Assembly: GCA_025354565.1 (NCBI GenBank)
Contig: JANXMQ010000017.1
Span: forward strand, 1-45,886
Direction of reading: 5' to 3'
Length of the DNA: 45,886 nucleotides
Source of the DNA: Akkermansiaceae bacterium
Lineage (GTDB): Bacteria > Verrucomicrobiota > Verrucomicrobiia > Verrucomicrobiales > Akkermansiaceae
This document shows, one piece after another, positions 3,517-15,584 of this stretch. Numbering within the stretch: the first letter of the stretch is position 1; every line of letters starts with the position of its first letter. Under the pieces are notes generated by a model. It was not told the DNA's origin, searched no databases, and worked only from the letters and a program-made list of their open reading frames with translations. The translations under genes and the position numbers were made by a program.

Positions 3517-3702
3517 GTGGTTTTGGTTGTTCCCGGTGCAGCAATTGTCAAACGATCTGGAAACGGGAGTGAGGCGGCGGCATCATTTGCAACCCATCTG
3601 GTGGAGAGAGGAACGGACCTGCGGACGATTCAGGATTTGTTGGGTCATGAGGATATCACGACAACGGAAATCTACCTGCATGTGACTTCAAATTCAAAAT
3701 AG
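3517..3702 (+). pseudogene. C-terminal fragment of a tyrosine recombinase (integrase)
   Basis: From about 3583 the frame reads [20 protein letters not shown], then [14 protein letters not shown], and ends at TAG 3702. This is the canonical end of a XerC/D or integron-type tyrosine recombinase: the histidine and Leu-Leu-Gly-His region and the Tyr of IYLHV (nucleophile) are present. The R-H-x-x-R box and all sequence upstream are replaced by unrelated sequence, so it cannot be active. The TTEIYLHV form is one I associate with integron integrases and related enzymes of environmental bacteria. It lies about 5 kb from the attC-like cassettes listed below, with the FtsK operon between. Confidence 0.75.
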
Positions 3703-3739: not shown

Positions 3740-6700
3740 TCACGCCGCGCCGGGCGCAGGGAAAATTTCATTCAGCCAATCCGCATCCGGCATGGCGTAC
3801 GGGCGGAAGGTTTCGAGGGTGCCGAGGTGCTCGTTGTGGAAAAGGGCGCGGTGGAGGCCGAGGTGGGTGGCGGCGGGTGAGTCGATGAGGTTGGCGGAAT
3901 CGCCGGCGCTCATTTGGAAGAGGACGCGCATCTCGAAGTCGGCCATTAATTTTCGCGGAATCCAGCGGCTGACGTTGTTCCAGGTATCGGTGGCGGCGAG
4001 GACGTGGATGCCGACGGGGCCGCCCTCGCCTAGCAGATTTGCGAGGGCTTGGGCCGGGGTGACGGCGGCGGGGGTGTCATCCATCGAGAAGCGGAATTCA
4101 TCGTCCGGGCGCAGGGCTTTGAATCGTTGGAGGTCGTGGATGATGAGGAAAATCTCCGGGGCATCGCGGCCGGATGTCGGGCCGCGGGATTCCAACTCGG
4201 CGTTGAGCTCGACCATGTGGGCGGCCACCTCGGCGGGACCACCGAGGCGGATGAAACCGGGGTGACGGGCGGCGAGTTTTTGCCACAAAGCATCCGCGCC
4301 TGAGTCATGGGCGTGGGGATCGAGGATGACGAAGGCGACTTGGCCGGGTGGGTATTGGGCGGCGAGGGCAACGACGGCGATGCCTAACAACGAGAGCGAG
4401 CGCTCGGCGGATTGGCCGACGACTAACAAATGGCTGCCGCTCTGGCGTTGGAAAATGGCTTCGGTGGGGCCTTTGATCGAATTCGGCGCACCGAGCCAAG
4501 CGCGGGCGGTGGCGGGACGGGCGGTGGGCGGCGTGCAGAACAGTGCTTTCAACTCCACGTTGTCGCGGACTTCGGCGGGCGCGTTGCCCTCGAAGATGAT
4601 CGGCGGACGCGGCAATTTCCCCTCGCTTCCGGCGCGGGCGGTGACTTGATCGAGGATGGCATCGCGCTCGTCCTCGGGGAGCCAGACGATTTGGAACGGG
4701 CTGTTAGCGGCGAGCGCACCGGCGTGATCGTTGTAAATCCCCTCGCCGGGCCGGGTGAGCATCCGGGGCGCGGGGTTGTCATCGTCCATGATGAGATGGG
4801 CATCGACCTCGTTGCACTGGAGGGCGATGCGGATGACCATCTGGCCGAGCGTGGCGCGGGCCAGAGTGTAGGCCCCCCCGAGAGTTTGGGAGCCGAGAAT
4901 GACGTGGATGCCGAAGGCGCGGCCTTGCCTAACAATCCGGTCTAGCAGCAGCGAGGCTTCTTGCGCAACGGCGTCGTCCTCGGTGAAAAATTCCTGAAAC
5001 TCGTCGATGAGCAACAAGCTGCGCGGCATCGGTTCGTGGCCGGGACTGCGCTTGTAACTGGCGAGATCCTGTGACCCGGCGCGACGGAACAACTCACCGC
5101 GACGTTTCAATTCCACATCCAGTCGCTGGAGCACGCTGAGCGCAAATTCCCGATCACTCTCGATGGCGATGACGCGGGCGTGCGGCAGCTTCTTGGTGGC
5201 GTAGCACTTGAACTCGACGCCTTTTTTGAAGTCCACCAGATAGAACTCGACCTGTGCCGGACTGCACCAGAGGGCGAGATTGGTGATGATGACATGAAAC
5301 AGGGTGGACTTGCCGGAGCCGGTTTTCCCGGCGACGAGGGCGTGCTGGCGGGTGCCTTTGCCGATGGCGAGCATCTGCAATTTCTTCGCCCCGGTGCGGC
5401 CGATCGGCACACGGAGTTCCTCGGTAGTGTCGAAGCTCCACATTTCATCCGCAGGTGGGGTGATGTGGGAAAATGGCACCTGCACGCGATTCGAGTCGAT
5501 GCTGGCCTTGCCGATACGATGGACCAGCGTGATCGCGTCCTCGGGCGCTGGCGGCGGATCGAAGGTGACTAAATCTGCTCCGGGCATAGCACCTGCTAGA
5601 TGAAACCGCCCGTCGCGCAAAGAGACGCGCAGGCAGGCACGGCGGAGTTCGTCATCGAGCGCAGCATCTAACGGCGGCTGGCGCATGTCCCGCTGGATGA
5701 GCACATGCACCCCGCAGCGCGCACCGCTGGAGGCGATGGAAAGCAGCCGTTTGCAAGCCGTGTCACTGAAGGCGGCGGGGAAACCGGCGATGACGAGAAA
5801 ACGGTATTTTTCCGCGATGATGCCGGCTTGTTCGTTGTATTCCGTGATGTCGGCGAACTCATTGCGCAGATACATCTGGATGACTTTTTCGATGTGCTCG
5901 TTGAGTTCCGCCAACCGTTCCTCGATCTGGGTGCTTTGGGTCCAGATGCGTTGGGTAATGAGCGTTTCCTCATAATCCGCGAGGTGCATGAGGCCCGCAA
6001 AATCCTTGCCGAGGCCGACCGGATCGATGAATACGAACGAGGCTCGCCCCGGCGGTTGTGCAGCTAACAGACGGAGCGCGATTTCACTGAGGGCCTGAGT
6101 CGCGACGCCACCACCTGTGCCGTCGCTCTCGATCATGAGCGAGCCGTGATTCGGAAAATCCAGGGCAAACGGCACGTTGAAATTCGCCTCACCCGGCAAG
6201 GCGAGTCGGCGGTCATGCGGGGTGCCACCCGCGAGTTTCACCAAATCCACCGCGATGTGTCCGAGGCGCACCGCTAGTGGCGCGTCATCAGGCGGGGTCC
6301 AGTTCGCGCAGACATCTGGACTCCAGCCGGGAAATTGGGCGAGCGATGTTGTTTCCAACACGCCGAGAGTGGTGAAATGCGGCAGCACGGTGGACTGCCA
6401 AGGAGTTGTTAGCTGGGCGATGAGCGCATCCGTTTCCGCCTCGATCATGCTGGTGGTTTTCGCGATCCCGGCAGTTGTTAGTGCGGATGCTGCTTGGCCG
6501 TCCGCTTGGGCGAGGACGAGGGCTTGCACGTGGCTGGCGTCGATCCGCGCGAGCTTGCGCTGATAAAGCCGGTCCAAGCGCGCAGGCAGGCGGGCGAACT
6601 GCTGGTCGAGTTTTTTCTGGCCCGCAGCCATGCGGGCTTTCCACTCGCTATCGGATTCGCGGAAAGTCTCGCCGAGGCTCTGACCTTCCACTTCCTGTTC

Positions 6701-7630
6701 GCTACGGACCTCGGCTGCCAAGGCCTCCAAGCGGGCGGCGGATTCCTTTTCGGCAGAAATTTCCAATACCCGCGCGGCTGCTAGAGATTCGGCGGCGCGG
6801 CGAACCGTCGGCATGGCGAGGAACAAACCCAGCGCCCAGACCAGCAGCAGGACGACTTCCGCGATGATGAGCGCGGGCAGGACCGCTGGTAGTCCGTGGC
6901 CACCCGTATGCAATGCCTGCCAGAGAAACGCCCCGGCGATGAGCAGTCCTAACAACCAGAGTGGCACGGTGCGGAAGAACCTCGCCAGGGGTAGGCGGTT
7001 AGCCTCATCCAAGGCCTCGCCAGCAGATGACAGGCGGGCTAACAGCTTCTCGCGCAGCGCGGCGGGCGGGCTGGTGAGATCCAATTCAGGGGCGTCGGTG
7101 CGTTTGCCGTCGTAATGCTTTTCCATCAAGGGGCGATAGGACCGGAAGGCGGAGAGGATCGATTTCCGCAAATCCCGGCGCAGGTTGCGGTCGGCTAGAA
7201 GTTCGGATTGAAACGCTCGGTGTGCTTCCTCCGCGCGGACTAACTCCTGCTTGCGGGTCTCGCGCTTCCGCATGATCGCGCCCTGAACTTGGCCGATTTT
7301 CCGGTCCTTCACGCTCTGCACGCGCTGGGCCATGGCGGCACGACTGGCGTGATAGGCTTGGTGAAATTTGTCACCACGCGCTGCGAACACGGCATCCGTA
7401 TGGGCGATTTCCTCCTGCCGGGCGGTGGCCAGTTCCCGGACTCGGTGGTTCAACACCTCCGCATCCGCCTCTTCCCGGGCAAGCATTTCGCGACGGACGA
7501 CCTGTAGGCGCTCGGCTCGATTTTTGATCAGGTCATGCTCGCTGGAAATAACGGAGGCGACCCCGGATTTCAGGTGTTCGAGCCGTCCCTGCACGGAGCG
7601 GAGATTGATGGATTCAGTCGCAGTCTGCAT
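3740..7630 (-). CDS. Membrane-anchored FtsK/SpoIIIE-type ATPase, type VII secretion (EccC/EssC)-like
   Basis: The protein has 1296 residues. Residues 1-200 are highly charged coiled coil. Two membrane helices follow at about 222-242 (WLLGLLIAGAFLWQAL) and 250-272, then a second coiled coil to about 390. Three FtsK/SpoIIIE-like ATPase domains come next. Domain 1 (from about 495) is degenerate, with SDGTGGGVAT where a P-loop should be. Domain 2 is canonical: Walker A GKTGSGKST near residue 765 and Walker B LLLIDEFQEFF near 875. Domain 3 has lost its P-loop (VVGQSAERS near 1070) but keeps a Walker B-like EIFLIIHD. Two TM helices plus three ATPase domains in one chain is the layout of EccC/EssC, the motor of type VII secretion, rather than of chromosomal FtsK. 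It is the last gene of the operon and its start overlaps the upstream stop by 17 nt. Its role in exporting the two WXG-like partners is inference. Confidence 0.85.
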   Translation of the reverse strand: MQTATESINLRSVQGRLEHLKSGVASVISSEHDLIKNRAERLQVVRREMLAREEADAEVLNHRVRELATARQEEIAHTDAVFAARGDKFHQAYHASRAAMAQRVQSVKDRKIGQVQGAIMRKRETRKQELVRAEEAHRAFQSELLADRNLRRDLRKSILSAFRSYRPLMEKHYDGKRTDAPELDLTSPPAALREKLLARLSSAGEALDEANRLPLARFFRTVPLWLLGLLIAGAFLWQALHTGGHGLPAVLPALIIAEVVLLLVWALGLFLAMPTVRRAAESLAAARVLEISAEKESAARLEALAAEVRSEQEVEGQSLGETFRESDSEWKARMAAGQKKLDQQFARLPARLDRLYQRKLARIDASHVQALVLAQADGQAASALTTAGIAKTTSMIEAETDALIAQLTTPWQSTVLPHFTTLGVLETTSLAQFPGWSPDVCANWTPPDDAPLAVRLGHIAVDLVKLAGGTPHDRRLALPGEANFNVPFALDFPNHGSLMIESDGTGGGVATQALSEIALRLLAAQPPGRASFVFIDPVGLGKDFAGLMHLADYEETLITQRIWTQSTQIEERLAELNEHIEKVIQMYLRNEFADITEYNEQAGIIAEKYRFLVIAGFPAAFSDTACKRLLSIASSGARCGVHVLIQRDMRQPPLDAALDDELRRACLRVSLRDGRFHLAGAMPGADLVTFDPPPAPEDAITLVHRIGKASIDSNRVQVPFSHITPPADEMWSFDTTEELRVPIGRTGAKKLQMLAIGKGTRQHALVAGKTGSGKSTLFHVIITNLALWCSPAQVEFYLVDFKKGVEFKCYATKKLPHARVIAIESDREFALSVLQRLDVELKRRGELFRRAGSQDLASYKRSPGHEPMPRSLLLIDEFQEFFTEDDAVAQEASLLLDRIVRQGRAFGIHVILGSQTLGGAYTLARATLGQMVIRIALQCNEVDAHLIMDDDNPAPRMLTRPGEGIYNDHAGALAANSPFQIVWLPEDERDAILDQVTARAGSEGKLPRPPIIFEGNAPAEVRDNVELKALFCTPPTARPATARAWLGAPNSIKGPTEAIFQRQSGSHLLVVGQSAERSLSLLGIAVVALAAQYPPGQVAFVILDPHAHDSGADALWQKLAARHPGFIRLGGPAEVAAHMVELNAELESRGPTSGRDAPEIFLIIHDLQRFKALRPDDEFRFSMDDTPAAVTPAQALANLLGEGGPVGIHVLAATDTWNNVSRWIPRKLMADFEMRVLFQMSAGDSANLIDSPAATHLGLHRALFHNEHLGTLETFRPYAMPDADWLNEIFPAPGAA

Positions 7631-7826
7631 GAATTTTGTCTAGCAAGTTGTCGAGTTCATCGATGACCCGCAAGGCTGAATTCACGCCATGCATCAGTTC
7701 CGATAGATACATTTCCTCGAATTCCTGGGCCTTGCGATCCCGCCATGCAAACCGCGTTTCTCCCCACCGCGCCTGAAGCTGGCGGGTGGCGAGGGTGAGC
7801 AGGCCCTTGCTGCCGGACATGCTCAT
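7614..7826 (-). CDS. Small WXG100-like protein (second copy)
   Basis: This 70-residue protein is predicted all-helical with no signal peptide. It carries AWRDRKAQEFEEMY with Trp28, Asp30 and Phe36. The same W-[QR]-D-x5-F spacing occurs in the first gene of the operon (Trp50, Asp52, Phe58). The helix-Trp turn-helix layout and short length fit the WXG100/ESAT-6 superfamily, although the Gly of WxG is Asp here. The start ATG overlaps the preceding stop as ATGA (7823-7826), and its own stop overlaps the start of the ATPase gene by 17 nt, so translation is probably coupled. It is likely a partner or substrate of the ATPase. The assignment is based on motif and context only. Confidence 0.65.
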   Translation of the reverse strand: MSMSGSKGLLTLATRQLQARWGETRFAWRDRKAQEFEEMYLSELMHGVNSALRVIDELDNLLDKIHADCD

Positions 7827-8347
7827 GGCTCACCTCCCGGTTCGGGGATTGCGGGCGCGGCGGGCTGTGGCGTTGGGCTTTTCTCGGCGTAGGCTTGCAG
7901 CGCCTTGATCGACTCCCCGAGCGAGTGGACACCCATCGGCAGACGCTGGCCGATGAATTCGAAGAGCGGCCCCAACTGCCGCAGCAAAGGCGTGGTGCGA
8001 GTCTCGAAGGTCTGCCGCCAGTGCTTGACGATTCGCAATTTTTCCTCCGCCTCCTGCACGTGCCGCCGGGCTTTGAGGACCGCCATTTTTTGAAATGCGT
8101 TGCTGGCCTGCGGGCTGGTTAGATTAGCGCTGTAAAGTTCCTGCTCCGCCTGTTGGAGATTTTTCAGGCCCAGTTTCAATTGCCCGGCCCAGTGCAGCGA
8201 GCGGTCCGTATCGAGCCAAGTCTGGGTGCGGCGGACATCGCCCTCCATGTCGTCCAGCGCGACGCGGGCCTTGGAAATGTATTGCAGCAAATCCGCACGA
8301 AAGGCTTCGAGCGCGTCGATGGAGGAAATTTTAACTTGGTCGGACAT
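7823..8347 (-). CDS. Coiled-coil protein of the type VII-like operon
   Basis: This 174-residue soluble protein (MSDQVKISSIDALEAF...) is almost entirely helical and charged, with heptad-like patterns from about residue 15 to 110, and a Pro/Ala-rich tail (PTPQPAAPAIPEPGGEP). It has no signal, membrane helix or catalytic motif. I chose ATG 8347; an in-frame GTG at 8359 would add four residues and begin 6 nt after the upstream stop. It is sandwiched between two WXG-like genes with a 4-nt overlap downstream, which makes it a plausible chaperone, adaptor or structural partner (compare EspG/EsaA-like accessory roles), but I see no homology to those. The function is inferred from position only. Confidence 0.75.
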   Translation of the reverse strand: MSDQVKISSIDALEAFRADLLQYISKARVALDDMEGDVRRTQTWLDTDRSLHWAGQLKLGLKNLQQAEQELYSANLTSPQASNAFQKMAVLKARRHVQEAEEKLRIVKHWRQTFETRTTPLLRQLGPLFEFIGQRLPMGVHSLGESIKALQAYAEKSPTPQPAAPAIPEPGGEP

Positions 8348-8365
8348 CGCGGATGGCACGCTGGT

Positions 8366-8659
8366 TCAGCGCTGATCGAGATACTGCTGGATGCGCTCCG
8401 CCTTGCGTAACAGATAGGGTGTGTGGCGGTCGGAAAGCTCTAGGAACGACTTGAGCGTCTTCATGAGCTGGGTGAACTCGGTGGCGAATTTATCCTGCTC
8501 CTGATCCTGCCAAGTGTCGCCCAAGGCGGTGAAACGGGTCATCAGCGAACCCGTCCGCTCGCGCAGATCGCCATTAAAACGCTTCAACTCCGCTGCAAAT
8601 CGGCGGACCTCCTCTGGGTCGATGATGGCTTGTGACATGGTGCTGGTGGTGGAATTCAT
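8366..8659 (-). CDS. WXG100-family-like protein, first gene of the type VII-like operon
   Basis: The protein has 97 residues, the standard WXG100 length. It is predicted to form two helices separated by a turn carrying Trp50 (ALGDTWQDQEQDKFATEF), preceded by a helix with ERTGSLMTRF and followed by one ending in LRKAERIQQYLDQR. The Trp sits where the WxG turn does in EsxA-type proteins; the Gly is replaced by Asp. The start ATG 8659 has AAGGAAG about 6 nt upstream, a strong site; an internal Met8 is also possible. The stop is 6-18 nt before the next gene. It is the likely secreted or assembly component of the neighbouring FtsK-like ATPase. Confidence 0.7.
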   Translation of the reverse strand: MNSTTSTMSQAIIDPEEVRRFAAELKRFNGDLRERTGSLMTRFTALGDTWQDQEQDKFATEFTQLMKTLKSFLELSDRHTPYLLRKAERIQQYLDQR

Positions 8660-11852: not shown

Positions 11853-14234
11853 ATGTCCATGCCGGAACGAGCCGAGACCATTGCCTATTGCCACGCGTGC
11901 GGGAGTGCGATGGATGTGTCCGCAGTTGCGCCATTCACCAATGTCGAGTGCCCGGCCTGTGGCAAACACACGCGGGTGAAGCGCGAGTTCGGACCCTACA
12001 CACTGCTGCGCCGCCATGCTCTGGGCGGGATGAGCATGGTGTTCGTCGCTCAAGACAACACGCTGGACCGGGAGGTGGCGTTGAAAATTCTCAGTGAAGA
12101 GTTCTCGGCGGACGAGCGGCGGATCGCGGCCTTCGAGGAGGAGGCGCGGATCACCGCTTCGTTCAGCCATCCGCATGTGGTGCGGGTGCTGCGGACGGGT
12201 CGGGCCTTCGAGCGCTTTTACATCGCCATGGAATTCGTGCCGGGCGGTCATTTCGAGCACCAGATCCGCGAGCGTGGGAAAATCCCCGAACTGGAGCTGC
12301 TGCCGCTCGCCATTCAGGTCGCGCAGGGACTCAAGGCCGCTCATGCGGCGGGTCTGATCCACCGCGACGTGAAGCCGGGAAATATATTGTTAGACGCCGA
12401 GGGCCATGCGAAAATCGTGGATTTCGGACTCGCCCTCGTGACACAGGGTGGCAGCGCTCAGGCAACCGAACTCTGGGCCACGCCGTATTACGTGCCGCCG
12501 GAAACGATCGAAGGTTACCCCGAGGATTTCCGGTCCGACATCTATGCCTTCGGGGCCACACTCTATCATGCACTGGCTGGCAAGCCGTCGTGCGGCGAGG
12601 AAACCATGTCCACCGATGTTTTACGCGAGGTGAAAAAAAAGGTGGTTCCGCTAGGCGTCGCAGATCCCAAGCTCTCGGCGGACGTCTGCCGGATCGTGGA
12701 GCGGGCCATGGCCTATGAACCGAACGACCGGTTCTCGTCTTATGACGAAATGATCGCGCTGTTAGAGATGGCCCTGAAACGTCTCAAATCAGGGACAGCA
12801 GGGACCTCGGGCAGTGCGGCGAAGCGCCGGGCGAAGAAAAAGCGCGGTGAGACATTCAACGTCGTGGCCGCCATCGGCCTCTTGTGTGCGGCGATCGGTG
12901 GCGGCATCTGGTGGGTCAACCGCAAAAACGAGCCATCGCTGGAAATCAAAAAGCCCGGGTTGACCAATAGCACGCCGATCATCCCGGAGGCCACGACTGC
13001 TGACTCGACAGATATTGCCCGCGACTACCGTGAGGCCCGGGCGGCGGTGGAGGCTCATGATTTTACCCGGGCCGCTGAGGATTTCGCGAAACTGCTGGAA
13101 AACCCCAAGGTGCAAGAGCCGACTCGCACATGGGCAGGCGTCGAAGCCGTGGCCGCCAACTATCTGGACGGGCAAGCCGCAGAAGCAAGGAACCAAGCCA
13201 AGGCGACATCCGCCCATCTGGTGACCGTCCCGCTGGATTCGCGCCTTGTGGGCATGGCTACGGTCTTGGAGAAAGTAATGTTGTTGCCCGCTATCCCCGC
13301 CAATGACACGGAAGTTGCGGAGGCCGATGCCACGCATGTCATGACTTGGATGCTGGCCGGTCTGAAAAACTGGGAACAAGGCCTCGCTGAACCTGCAACC
13401 GCGTGTTTTACGGCTGCCGCCACCGCGAAAATTTCAGCAGAGGATTCCTGGCTGACCATCTATCAGAAACTCGCGCAGGACTATCTGGCGGACTATTCCG
13501 CACTCTCCAGTCCCGTATTCGCGGGGTATCCCAAAGATGATGCTGGCTGCAATGCCGCCATTGCCGAGCTCGACACAATTCTCCCCAAGCTGAAAACCCG
13601 TGGCCGCGCCCGCTACGATGTCCGGGCCTGGCAACTCGATTTAGCCAAACATGCGAAACTGTTAGCCACCGCCAAAAGCGGCTCAACCGGGTCATCCCAT
13701 CCCCCCGCCTCCTGGGATTTGGTCGCGATGATGGCGAAACTGGAAAGCTTCACGAAAGACTGCCGATTCATCGAAGCATCGGCTTATCTGAAGTCGCTGG
13801 GGGCAGATACCCAGGGCGCGACCCGGACGTCCCTGATCGCGCTGACAGACTCCGCCGTTATCTTCCTAACCGATTTAGCAAAGGACCTCGCCAAAGAAGC
13901 TGTCAGCGGCGAATTCTCCCTGAAATCCGGGGAAGTCATCCGAAAAATTGCTGCGGATGACGCCGGGATCATCACCACCACCGATGGCAACGGGCAGGTG
14001 CATCACTCGACATGGGCGGATTTATCGTCTGACACACTCATCGAGCTACATCGGATTTTCGTTAAAAATTCACCCAGCGAGCAGGAACGACTTCGCCGCC
14101 ATGAGTGCGCGATTTCCTACGACTGGCTGGCGGGAAATCGTGAACACGCGCTCACCGCTGCCGCTACCCTCTCGCAAACCAGCCCCGCATTCAAACAGCG
14201 TTGGGACAAACTCGCCAGCGGTTTGCCGAAGTGA
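11853..14234 (+). CDS. Membrane serine/threonine protein kinase with N-terminal zinc ribbon
   Basis: The protein has 793 residues. Residues 13-36 form a zinc ribbon (CHACG and CPACG). The Hanks-type kinase domain (about 47-315) has a glycine loop ALGGMSMVF, the ATP-anchoring Lys in VALKIL, catalytic HRDVKPGNILLD (near 168) and metal-binding DFGLA (near 190). A basic juxtamembrane segment (KRRAKKKRG) precedes one membrane helix (about 332-352, VVAAIGLLCAAIGGGIWWV). The C-terminal 430 residues are helical, TPR-like and periplasmic, perhaps a sensor. All catalytic residues are present, so it should be active. Start 11853 has a second in-frame ATG two codons later. No cognate phosphatase or FHA protein is adjacent. 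It lies 3.2 kb from the type VII-like operon, but nothing in sequence links them. Confidence 0.9.
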   Translation: MSMPERAETIAYCHACGSAMDVSAVAPFTNVECPACGKHTRVKREFGPYTLLRRHALGGMSMVFVAQDNTLDREVALKILSEEFSADERRIAAFEEEARITASFSHPHVVRVLRTGRAFERFYIAMEFVPGGHFEHQIRERGKIPELELLPLAIQVAQGLKAAHAAGLIHRDVKPGNILLDAEGHAKIVDFGLALVTQGGSAQATELWATPYYVPPETIEGYPEDFRSDIYAFGATLYHALAGKPSCGEETMSTDVLREVKKKVVPLGVADPKLSADVCRIVERAMAYEPNDRFSSYDEMIALLEMALKRLKSGTAGTSGSAAKRRAKKKRGETFNVVAAIGLLCAAIGGGIWWVNRKNEPSLEIKKPGLTNSTPIIPEATTADSTDIARDYREARAAVEAHDFTRAAEDFAKLLENPKVQEPTRTWAGVEAVAANYLDGQAAEARNQAKATSAHLVTVPLDSRLVGMATVLEKVMLLPAIPANDTEVAEADATHVMTWMLAGLKNWEQGLAEPATACFTAAATAKISAEDSWLTIYQKLAQDYLADYSALSSPVFAGYPKDDAGCNAAIAELDTILPKLKTRGRARYDVRAWQLDLAKHAKLLATAKSGSTGSSHPPASWDLVAMMAKLESFTKDCRFIEASAYLKSLGADTQGATRTSLIALTDSAVIFLTDLAKDLAKEAVSGEFSLKSGEVIRKIAADDAGIITTTDGNGQVHHSTWADLSSDTLIELHRIFVKNSPSEQERLRRHECAISYDWLAGNREHALTAAATLSQTSPAFKQRWDKLASGLPK

Positions 14235-14366: not shown

Positions 14367-15584
14367 TCATTTCAGCGATTTCACATACGCTACTAACTGG
14401 TCGATCTGCTCGTCGGTAAGCGGCAGCACCGGCATCGCTGCCGCATAGCCTTTCACGATCTGAAGTTGCGGCTGTTTGATAGATTGGCGGAGATAAGCCT
14501 CGTCCGCGATGACTACGGAGCCGTCTGTTAGGATCTGCCGAGAGTTGAACACGCCCTGAAGATTTGGCGCGAGTTGTGACGCTCCAGATTGATGGCAGGC
14601 CGCGCAACCTTGGCTGATGAATAACCTGCTGCCTGCCTGAATCGCCGGATCTGACGTGCTACTTTGTGCCGTTGGAGAGGCAAGCAAACAGCCGATGGCC
14701 GCGCAGGCGGCGATGAAGGTCCCGAAGATCGCGACCAACCATTGGCGGAAATAATACCGCGAGTTCATCAAGAATTTCACCGTGACCAACGAGACGATGA
14801 GCACGCACAGAATCGCAATCCGGTTCCCCGCACTGCTGAGTTGCGGGAAGTGGCCGCTCAACATCAAAAACAACACCGGAAACGTCATGTAGTGGTTGTG
14901 CAGTGAACGCAGCTTCGCCTGCTTGCCGTATTTCAAATCGTGGGGCGATCCGGCTAACAGCGAAACCATGAACTTCCGCTGGTTTTGGATGATGTGAAAA
15001 AACACGTTCGCCGTCATCGCCGAGCCCATCATCGCGCCGATCTGTAGATACAGCGCACGACCATTGAAATGCTGATTGTAAAACCACGCCGCCGCCAGTA
15101 GGAGTACTAAGGTGAGCGGAGCCGCCAGCAGCGGGCGATCCTTCAATTTCGTCCGCCAGAGCAGGTCATAGATCAACCACCAAACCAGAATACCTCCCAC
15201 GCTCAGCCCGATGGCGGCCGGCCCGGAGAGAGTGGTTTTGGCAGCGTCTAGCAGCGCGGCACCCGAGTGCGGATAGAAAGTGACTATCAGCAACAGCACG
15301 CCGCTGATCCAAGTGGTGTAGGATTGCCACATGAACCAATGCAGCGGCAACGGAATCGCCTGGGGCTGGATCAGGCGCTTTTCAAGATGAAAAACGCCGC
15401 CGCCGTGAAGCATGTCGAGATGACCTAGCAAGCCGTTAGATTCTGGCTCATCCGCTGGCTTCGGCGCGATCAGATTCAACTCCATCCAAGTGAACAAGAG
15501 CGAGTTTCCCACCCACATAATCGCCGCAAGAACATGCACGAAGCGGAACACCACTCCCAACCAGCCAGCGATTTCAGATTCCAT
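14367..15584 (-). CDS. PuuD-like membrane protein with C-terminal cytochrome c domain
   Basis: This 405-residue integral membrane protein matches the urate hydroxylase PuuD family as I know it. Eight or so hydrophobic helices contain the family's MLHGGGVFHLEK and MWQSYTTWISG motifs, with conserved histidines probably binding haem. A cytochrome c domain is fused at the C-terminus (CAACH haem site near residue 336, distal Met in AAMPVLPLT). In the type family the enzyme oxidises urate and passes electrons to a cytochrome. No other purine-degradation genes are nearby, so here it may serve another respiratory role. The start MESEIAGWLGVVF gives a first helix with an N-out His and Trp, as expected. 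It is monocistronic and convergent with the kinase gene. Confidence 0.75.
   Translation of the reverse strand: MESEIAGWLGVVFRFVHVLAAIMWVGNSLLFTWMELNLIAPKPADEPESNGLLGHLDMLHGGGVFHLEKRLIQPQAIPLPLHWFMWQSYTTWISGVLLLIVTFYPHSGAALLDAAKTTLSGPAAIGLSVGGILVWWLIYDLLWRTKLKDRPLLAAPLTLVLLLAAAWFYNQHFNGRALYLQIGAMMGSAMTANVFFHIIQNQRKFMVSLLAGSPHDLKYGKQAKLRSLHNHYMTFPVLFLMLSGHFPQLSSAGNRIAILCVLIVSLVTVKFLMNSRYYFRQWLVAIFGTFIAACAAIGCLLASPTAQSSTSDPAIQAGSRLFISQGCAACHQSGASQLAPNLQGVFNSRQILTDGSVVIADEAYLRQSIKQPQLQIVKGYAAAMPVLPLTDEQIDQLVAYVKSLK

What the first reader, a model, noticed from the sequence alone, without database searches (positions are those of the whole stretch)
3740..8659. Minimal type VII secretion-like operon in a diderm bacterium
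Four genes are packed with overlaps (6-18, 4 and 17 nt): a 97-residue WXG100-like protein, a 174-residue coiled-coil protein, a 70-residue WXG-like protein, and a 1296-residue two-TM ATPase with three FtsK/SpoIIIE-like domains. WXG100 plus EccC/EssC-type ATPase is the defining pair of type VII secretion, established in Gram-positives. Here no other ESX/Ess component (EccB, EccD, EsaA, EssB, mycosin) is present. Either a reduced machine or a different use of the same motor is likely, and how a substrate would cross an outer membrane is unknown.
Basis: partly seen in the sequence, partly recalled or inferred. Interest (0 to 1): 0.82.

Follow-up and report, generated by a model that had tools for sequence, protein, structure and literature searches.

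The report
Minimal EccC-type operon in Verrucomicrobiota
A four-gene unit that recurs in a phylum of two-membraned bacteria pairs a small hairpin protein with a membrane-anchored motor related to the type VII secretion motor; it is probably a stripped-down protein exporter of a kind already sketched in the literature, in a form I did not find described.

Summary
Minus strand: a WXG100 protein, a coiled-coil protein, a 70-residue protein and a 1296-residue FtsK-type ATPase. All four occur in this order in 71 of 81 loci (80 best relatives plus window). Long ATPase matches and WXG100 go together: 27 of 28 genomes against 0 of 31; 20 of 20 against 1 of 367 phylum-wide, the exception a PPE/EccD contig. 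The ATPase is EccC-like in fold, has a membrane hairpin, and only its middle domain keeps Walker A (80 of 80). YukC/EssB and YukD were absent from 8 of 8 genomes searched. The kind is known: a 2012 footnote (PMC3482391) names Verrucomicrobia among lineages with solo WXG domains and a three-domain ATPase active only in the middle; H. pylori HP0062/HP0066 and CoCoNuT modules are relatives. This form, membrane-anchored and without an effector domain, I did not find described. Best reading: a minimal inner-membrane export motor for helical-hairpin proteins. Secretion is not shown, and WXG kinship of the 70-residue protein is only suggestive: my first comparison held a wrong row.

The parts
8366..8659 (-). 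WXG100-family protein (97 aa as an ORF; conserved start at 8638 gives 90 aa), W-x-D at the turn
   Evidence: PF06013 38.1 bits; best solved relative H. pylori HP0062, 3fx7, E 9.3e-9; most conserved of the four, mean pairwise identity 70% over 68 loci
7823..8347 (-). Coiled-coil protein, 174 aa: long two-helix hairpin with a proline-rich tail; it lies between the WXG gene and the ATPase, where some relatives encode a nuclease protein
   Evidence: AlphaFold2 pLDDT 91.9, helices 2-76 and 82-155 of a 173-residue model that begins at residue 2; one match in each of 10 genomes searched
7614..7826 (-). 70-aa protein, possibly a short-armed WXG-like protein
   Evidence: invariant W21, W28, D30, F36 in 22 aligned rows; WxD in 79 of 79; profile evidence for WXG kinship mixed: 75.4 and 4.4; overlaps the ATPase gene by 17 nt
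3740..7630 (-). 1296-aa membrane-anchored EccC/EssC-like FtsK-type ATPase
   Evidence: FtsK_SpoIIIE 110.5 bits, three stretches at E up to 1; Foldseek best match EccC 4nh0, E 2.6e-30; matches of 590 bits or more in 28 of 59 genomes, own included, some cut by contig ends
6986..7630 (-). N-terminal charged, probably coiled-coil region of the ATPase, about residues 1-215
   Evidence: read by eye from the sequence; not modelled; a long N-terminal coiled coil is described for CoCoNuT EssC homologues (PMC11090510)
6818..6979 (-). Two-helix membrane hairpin of the ATPase, about residues 218-271
   Evidence: hydropathy scan: two segments in 61, one in 15, three in 4 of 80 family members; none in L113, L114, L122, L124; one weak one each in L112, L115, L116
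5495..6373 (-). First ATPase-like domain, degenerate, about residues 420-712
   Evidence: Walker A 0 of 80; model aligns with the EccC5 DUF domain (8rin, Z 14.9, rmsd 3.9, 223 aligned) and, with all three domains, with EccC 4nh0 (Z 22.4, rmsd 15.7, 727 aligned)
4661..5494 (-). Middle, catalytically intact ATPase domain, about residues 713-990; Walker A at 5306-5329
   Evidence: Walker A 80 of 80 and D[ED] 80 of 80; family profile scores EccC/EssC D1 77-83 bits, D2 39-63, D3 12-24 where found
3743..4573 (-). Third ATPase-like domain, degenerate, about residues 1020-1296
   Evidence: Walker A 0 of 80; fold match to EccCb1-D2 (9jv8, Z 22.1, rmsd 2.9, 235 aligned) and other EccC chains

Best explanation
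It is a minimal, EccC-type protein translocation module of the inner membrane. The ATPase probably forms a hexamer whose membrane hairpins sit at or form the pore, and the middle domain burns ATP (inferred from EccC/FtsK relatives). The WXG100 protein, the long coiled-coil hairpin and probably the 70-aa protein form one helical complex in the cytoplasm, much as an LXG toxin does with its two WXG-like partners (Lap1, Lap2) in T7SSb; the motor engages that complex and moves part of it, most likely the coiled-coil protein, to the periplasm. In a relative the gene between WXG and ATPase is a nuclease with a neighbouring immunity-type gene, so this lineage may keep the delivery part without a recognisable toxin. 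Shown: gene set, order, co-occurrence, fold, the one intact ATPase site, hydrophobic hairpin, no other recurrent neighbour. Inferred: hexamer, complex, translocation, substrate. Unknown: outer-membrane passage. (Odds lowered from 0.50 after a faulty row was removed from the 70-aa comparison.)
For: Pairing of ATPase and WXG100 (27 of 28 vs 0 of 31; 20 of 20 vs 1 of 367). Four genes in order in 71 of 81 loci; WXG to coiled-coil within 30 nt in 64 of 71, coiled-coil to 70-aa gene abutting or overlapping in 57 of 71. No gene outside the four recurs in more than 5 of 55 gene-called sources. EccC is the top Foldseek match, E 2.6e-30, ahead of FtsK 1.6e-12. Hydrophobic hairpin upstream of an EccC-DUF-like domain. 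Helicobacter plasmid L116 has WXG (below Pfam's cut-off), a protein with WHH/colicin-DNase domains, a SUKH-1 protein, a 77-aa protein, then the ATPase. The WXG protein is closest to HP0062, also W-x-D. The coiled-coil protein is a hairpin of two 74-75-residue helices; LXG effectors use two WXG-like partners (PMC9600955, passages).
Against: No secretion data. No Pfam domain in the coiled-coil protein, which ends in a variable tail, and no further homologue of it in 10 genomes. YxxxD/E absent in 76 of 76 WXG proteins and in the last 30 residues of 79 of 79 70-aa proteins. WXG100 is the most conserved part (70% against 39-49%), which suits a fixed machine part better than a released substrate. 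The coiled-coil match to the Rhodococcus protein is weak (57.6, no control run) and there is none to the Helicobacter or Caballeronia proteins; their 77- and 76-aa proteins do not match the 70-aa family either (0.4, 0.6). Kinship of the 70-aa protein to WXG is unproven. Membrane-free relatives exist, so the motor family is not tied to a membrane.
Confidence: 0.46

Rival explanations
1. A non-secretory, membrane-bound conflict or stress module: the hairpin proteins regulate the ATPase, which remodels a protein or nucleoprotein complex inside the cell.
For: Related modules sit beside CARF, vWA, PP2C and kinase genes (Caballeronia L113; genome G265) and inside CoCoNuT operons (PMC11090510, passages), without membrane segments. 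The hairpin proteins lack a known export signal. WXG100 is the most conserved part.
Against: The form here has a conserved hydrophobic hairpin, no recurrent vWA, CARF or nuclease neighbour, and its tree clusters by taxonomic order, unlike typical defence islands.
Confidence: 0.28
2. A secretion motor serving effectors encoded elsewhere in the genome, with the WXG100 protein as a general partner.
For: EccC-type motor and WXG100 pairing; T7SSb effectors can be unlinked (recalled).
Against: One WXG100 per genome in 27 of 27 carriers and one coiled-coil homologue in each of 10 genomes, so no recognisable unlinked substrate carries either part; diverged hairpins would be missed.
Confidence: 0.15
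3. A DNA translocase of the FtsK/SpoIIIE or HerA kind that has recruited hairpin proteins.
For: Same ATPase superfamily; FtsK and TcpA chains lead the VIA-align list (Z 23.5 and 23.2), tied with EccC (22.7, 22.4); the middle-domain profile gives three FtsK proteins 52-53 bits plus a second piece of 16-17.
Against: Foldseek ranks EccC, then EssC, then FtsK; curated models give 115.9/114.0/88.2 bits for EccC/EssC against 23.9 for FtsK and 9.5 for HerA; WXG100 pairing.
Confidence: 0.09

Closest known systems
Solo WXG with YueA-like ATPase, 'mobile versions of T7SS' (Zhang et al. 2012, PMC3482391, table footnote; passages seen)
   Same: Verrucomicrobia named; one WXG; three FtsK/HerA domains, only the middle active (80 of 80 here)
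   Different: The passage gives no gene list, membrane anchor, coiled-coil or 70-aa protein; the tree here clusters by order, which looks less mobile
H. pylori 'WXG100 secretion system' with HP0062 and HP0066 (PMC4978471, PMC3397514; passages)
   Same: HP0062 is the best solved relative of the WXG protein and also has W-x-D; an FtsK-type ATPase gene goes with it
   Different: An HNH nuclease gene belongs to that cluster; the related Helicobacter plasmid ATPase is 823 aa with one weak hydrophobic stretch
CoCoNuT type III-A EssC-like extension (PMC11090510, passages)
   Same: Three ATPase domains with only the central one active, long N-terminal coiled coil, two WXG100-like proteins (the second here only possibly so), a coiled-coil protein
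   Different: There no transmembrane helices, a coiled coil fused to a D-ExK nuclease and vWA flanks; here a hydrophobic hairpin, no recognised nuclease, no such recurrent flank
T7SSa/T7SSb (ESX, Ess)
   Same: WXG100 plus EccC/EssC-like ATPase with a membrane hairpin
   Different: No YukC/EssB or YukD in 8 genomes, no YxxxD/E on the WXG family, one intact ATPase domain, N-terminal coiled coil
LXG-Lap1-Lap2 presecretion complex of T7SSb (PMC9600955, passages)
   Same: A long helical protein encoded with two small proteins
   Different: No toxin domain here; no sequence relation tested; analogy only

Membership tests
T7SS (ESX/Ess) | WXG100-family protein | tested here: met
   PF06013 38.1 bits over the 27.3 cut-off; NCBIfam WXG100_ESAT6 28.7 bits is under its 44.85 cut-off
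T7SS (ESX/Ess) | EccC/EssC ATPase at the curated family cut-off | tested here: not met
   EccC_b 115.9 vs 346.55, EccC_a 114 vs 509.15, EssC 88.2 vs 778.4 bits; Foldseek match to EccC is strong
T7SS (ESX/Ess) | YukC/EssB and YukD/EsaB components (T7SSb) | tested here: not met
   0 of 8 genomes each, control rang in B. subtilis
T7SS (ESX/Ess) | EccB component (T7SSa) | tested here: inconclusive
   0 of 8 genomes but no control rang
T7SS (ESX/Ess) | EccD membrane part, EccE, EssA, EsaA, mycosin | not tested
   No whole-genome search made; only no recurrent neighbour in 55 gene-called sources
T7SS (ESX/Ess) | YxxxD/E export motif on a hairpin partner | tested here: not met
   WXG 0 of 76; 70-aa family 0 of 79 in the last 30 residues (5 of 79 have one anywhere); coiled-coil 1 of 80 in the last 30, 14 of 80 anywhere
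T7SS (ESX/Ess) | ATPase-dependent secretion | not testable with these tools
   needs a culture experiment
Solo WXG + middle-active YueA-like ATPase (PMC3482391) | Three FtsK/HerA domains, only the middle active | tested here: met
   Walker A 0/80, 80/80, 0/80; three folds in the model
Solo WXG + middle-active YueA-like ATPase (PMC3482391) | A solo WXG100 | tested here: met
   27 of 27 carriers have one Pfam WXG100; phylum sample: 18 of 20 ATPase carriers have one, G265 has two (two systems), G368 a second hit below cut-off
Solo WXG + middle-active YueA-like ATPase (PMC3482391) | Mobility | tested here: inconclusive
   Tree labels of the two larger orders clustered, 0 of 500 shuffles as low, yet 6 and 3 changes; flanks not recurrent; an integrase remnant lies downstream
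CoCoNuT III-A EssC-like extension | No transmembrane helices; nuclease-fused coiled coil; vWA flanks | tested here: not met
   Hydrophobic hairpin in the family; no Pfam domain in the coiled-coil protein; no such recurrent neighbour
FtsK/HerA DNA translocase | Closest relatives are DNA translocases | tested here: inconclusive
   EccC/EssC lead; but single FtsK and TcpA domains tie with EccC by Z, and on the middle-domain profile FtsK reaches 52-53 (+16-17) bits and two other plasmid FtsK-like proteins 81-95, against 77-83 for EccC/EssC D1

The most novel reading that the evidence does not exclude
A one-motor protein exporter of diderm bacteria: an EccC homologue whose own membrane hairpins make the inner-membrane pore, with no other membrane subunit, moving a toxin-free bundle of helical hairpins by a signal other than YxxxD/E.
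Probability: 0.23. Interest if true: 0.78.

Novelty: new variant of a known kind. Interest (0 to 1): 0.5.

Why it matters
Type VII secretion is usually described as a Gram-positive and mycobacterial machine with several membrane subunits. A module that recurs in a diderm phylum with only the motor, a WXG100 protein and two further small helical proteins would be a natural test of what the EccC motor can do alone, and of how hairpin substrates are recognised without the known signal. Records that look like isolates rather than bins carry all four genes (Verrucomicrobium sp. BvORR034, Haloferula luteola YC6886), so it could be tested.

Tried and rejected
A result of mine withdrawn: one search gave the WXG and 70-aa families a profile match of 96.5. 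One row of the 70-aa set (L092) was in fact a WXG gene. Without it the match is 4.4, within the 0.1-7.4 of 20 column-shuffled controls; the separate alignments A2 and A3, which do not hold that row, give 75.4, and the cleaned family gives 70-72 against two W-x-D proteins of relatives. An iterative search in a small database reached one WXG gene at the second round (E 7.5e-4) and most at the third. I treat the kinship as suggestive.

HerA or conjugation origin of the ATPase: not favoured by full-length ranking, with the ties told above.

Which EccC domain the active one matches: D1 by family profile (77-83 against 39-63 bits) and against EccC5 (63.9 against 29.1 bits), with the first domain aligning to the EccC DUF domain; but the EccC_b model (115.9 bits), the three-domain alignment to 4nh0 and PMC11090510 use the other register. 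Left open.

Fold search of the coiled-coil protein: 0 of 754 matches (E up to 10) reach E 0.001, generic hairpins among the 50 shown. The 70-aa profile found no solved structure better than E 0.31; the coiled-coil profile none better than 0.0032, a prolyl hydroxylase. The coiled-coil family also gave 51.4 against the Caballeronia WXG protein but 3.7 against our own WXG family: not used. PADLOC gave SspH 105.3 and mads_8 74.2 bits on the ATPase domain only; PHROGs FtsK-like 149.6.

Plasmid and phage searches with the ATPase found 0 records with one place covering 80% of it. Papers: no report of the four-gene verrucomicrobial form in the listings; the library holds open-licence papers only. Two papers sought by id, Anantharaman 2012 and Iyer 2004, are not held; the first is known here only through citing papers.

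Rows dropped: six ATPase fragments of the 81 loci were left out of the 80-row counts, to which five genome-fetch loci were added. Only the best 80 of 388 relatives were returned. The profile contained a Helicobacter row, so the single-sequence search is the fair one. Gene clusters of 14, 10, 8 and 6 loci all overlap the four genes and are artefact frames. In the phylum sample three further genomes without the ATPase (G109, G191, G275) have WXG100 hits at E 5e-4 to 8e-4, under the cut-off, and one of the 20 carriers, G250, has only the membrane-free type. In one search, G024 has two short fragments only and counts as a non-carrier.
Full report
What is there. Four genes lie on the minus strand: WXG100 (8366-8659), coiled-coil (7823-8347 from its conserved ATG), 70-aa protein (7614-7826) and ATPase (3740-7630). 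The last two junctions overlap by 4 and 17 nt; the first is a short gap. The nearest named relatives of the ATPase are Akkermansiaceae and Verrucomicrobiaceae assemblies.

The WXG100 protein passes the Pfam cut-off (38.1 against 27.3 bits) but not NCBIfam's (28.7 against 44.85). It is the only PF06013 hit in its genome. Its closest solved relative is HP0062 of H. pylori (3fx7, E 9.3e-9), ahead of EsxB and EsxA chains. It has W-x-D in place of W-x-G in 76 of 76 family members; HP0062 has WRD (PMC3397514, passages). It is the most conserved of the four (mean pairwise identity 70%, against 39% coiled-coil, 42% 70-aa, 49% ATPase; 68-69 loci).

The 70-aa protein has no Pfam family over its cut-off (one match far below). 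Both it and the WXG family carry an invariant W-x-D-x5-F. Profile comparison is mixed: 75.4 for the alignments A2 and A3, 4.4 for the larger cleaned families, with 20 shuffled controls at 0.1-7.4; an earlier 96.5 was due to a wrong row and is withdrawn. So 'second WXG-like protein' is a plausible guess, in line with CoCoNuT modules where two WXG100 proteins are reported (PMC11090510, passages).

The coiled-coil protein is predicted as two helices of 75 and 74 residues and a low-confidence proline-rich tail (mean pLDDT 91.9). It has no Pfam domain, no specific fold match, lengths of 94-200 aa in 80 rows and one match in each of 10 genomes searched.

The ATPase has about 215 charged N-terminal residues, a hydrophobic hairpin, a stretch that looks helical by eye, and three FtsK-type folds. 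In 80 family members Walker A is present in the middle domain in 80, in the others in 0; the middle D[ED] is in 80 of 80. A hydropathy scan gives two segments in 61, one in 15 and three in 4 of 80. A model of residues 420-1296 (mean pLDDT 81.1) has T. curvata EccC as its best Foldseek match (E 2.6e-30), then EssC, then FtsK (1.6e-12); by VIA-align Z, single FtsK and TcpA domains (23.5, 23.2) tie with EccC (22.7, 22.4). Its first domain aligns with the EccC5 DUF domain (8rin, Z 14.9, rmsd 3.9, 223 aligned), and the middle one scores highest against EccC/EssC D1 among EccC domains. This favours a TM-stalk-DUF-D1-D2 reading with D3 lost; the EccC_b model, the 4nh0 alignment and the published reading favour D1-D2-D3, so the register stays open.

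How general it is. All four genes occur in order in 71 of 81 loci, the 80 best relatives and the window. Of the ten others, five contigs begin inside the ATPase gene and two begin just upstream (L058, L064); L062, L072 and L099 lack an adjacent WXG gene with room for it. L062 has the length of contig C94 of G055, whose WXG gene lies on contig C90. In 59 genomes, own included, 28 have an ATPase match of 590 bits or more and 27 have WXG100, one each, all among those 28; the one without, G020, is 59% complete and its ATPase is cut by a contig end. In 387 genomes drawn from the phylum 20 have the ATPase at E up to 1e-50, G250 with only the membrane-free type; all 20 have WXG100 over the cut-off, 21 genomes do, and three more have hits under it. 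In at least G062 and G143 the two lie on different contigs. The odd one, G430, carries EccD (101.1 bits), PPE (56.1) and a PE-like gene under its cut-off (20.2 against 22) beside a WXG100 pair, which looks like mycobacterial-type contamination (inference). Fisher tests give 1.5e-32 and 5.8e-16, but shared descent makes these too small. YukC and YukD are absent from 8 of 8 genomes; EccB was also not found, but its control was silent.

Descent. In an 87-row quick tree, rooted on the plasmid and TerY-P types, the 80 sequences of this form stand apart with support 85, not firm, and several outgroup branches are very long. Verrucomicrobiales (34 rows) and Limisphaerales (9) are clustered, 0 of 500 shuffles as low, though with 6 and 3 changes; 41 rows have no order label. 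No gene outside the four recurs in more than 5 of 55 gene-called sources; the crude gene caller missed many small genes. This suggests a module kept largely by descent, often lost, at varying places.

Relatives and the effector slot. Plasmid relatives are the best clue to function. Helicobacter sp. NHP19-012: WXG (24 bits, below cut-off), a 340-aa protein with WHH and colicin-DNase domains, a SUKH-1 protein, 77 aa, ATPase. Caballeronia sp. SBC2: vWA, WXG100, 436 aa, 113 aa, 76 aa, ATPase, CARF, vWA, PP2C, kinase; a genome of our phylum (G265) has a similar layout as a second system. The C-terminus of the 436/442-aa proteins looks to me like a D-ExK nuclease, as PMC11090510 describes, but Pfam found nothing in the 436-aa one. 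Deinococcus and Rhodococcus plasmids have other orders, with small genes after the ATPase. Rhodococcus L112 has a 314-aa protein whose N-terminus aligns weakly with the coiled-coil family (57.6, no control run); the Helicobacter and Caballeronia proteins give under 1. So position, not sequence, links the coiled-coil protein to effectors.

How it most likely works. I read it as an inner-membrane export motor that handles a complex of helical hairpins, by analogy with the LXG-Lap1-Lap2 complex (PMC9600955, passages). The absence of YxxxD/E and the possible loss of the EccC third domain, which binds that signal in T. curvata EccC (recalled; the title of 4n1a names ATPases 2 and 3 with a signal peptide), would go together. 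Every step of transport is inference. Against it stand the lack of an effector domain, the high conservation of WXG100, the unproven kinship of the 70-aa protein, and membrane-free relatives in defence operons.

What is known. A footnote in PMC3482391 (passages) already names Verrucomicrobia among lineages with solo WXG domains and a YueA-like ATPase with three FtsK/HerA domains, only the middle active, which 'appear to be mobile versions of T7SS'. PMC11090510 and PMC4978471 (passages) describe relatives. A 2024 paper on T7SS variants covers Actinomycetota and Bacillota and has no occurrence of Verrucomicrobia (passages); a 2014 WXG100 survey reports almost only Actinobacteria and Firmicutes with a few Chloroflexi (passage). 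The listings show no report of this four-gene form. So: a new variant of a known kind.

Noticed in passing
window 3517-3702 (+): Remnant of a tyrosine recombinase: its end matches Phage_integrase (44.7 bits, profile 135-170 of 172), about 40 nt beyond the ATPase stop on the other strand. It may mark past mobility of the site.
   Followed up: partly
window 11853-14234 (+): 793-aa protein with a Ser/Thr kinase domain (148.7 bits), about 3 kb from the operon; a kinase accompanies the TerY-P type relatives but none is a recurrent neighbour here.
   Followed up: partly
window 14367-15584 (-): Urate oxidase N-terminal domain followed by cytochrome c.
   Followed up: no
L122 4666-15345 (genome G265): Second, membrane-free system: vWA-like protein, WXG100, 442-aa coiled-coil protein, ATPase, Card1-like CARF protein (endonuclease domain 43.9 bits), vWA-like, then proteins that look like PP2C and kinase (only the CARF protein and the 125-aa protein were scanned).
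   Followed up: partly
L128 (genome G430, contig 115): WXG100 pair, EccD, PPE and a PE-like gene in a verrucomicrobial bin: an ESX-type locus, probably contamination.
   Followed up: yes
genomes of the window's genus: Carriers have larger genomes than non-carriers (15 against 22 genomes, Mann-Whitney p 1.4e-5); sizes rounded, completeness differs, shared descent not removed.
   Followed up: partly
L130 1691-6210 (Streptomyces plasmid): WXG100 and EccCa genes side by side with no other T7SS gene annotated in the 7 kb shown (the table is incomplete by design).
   Followed up: no
L117 3672-5606 (phage-labelled contig, human faeces): A 26% match over half of the ATPase on an unannotated 10.4-kb record.
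   Followed up: no
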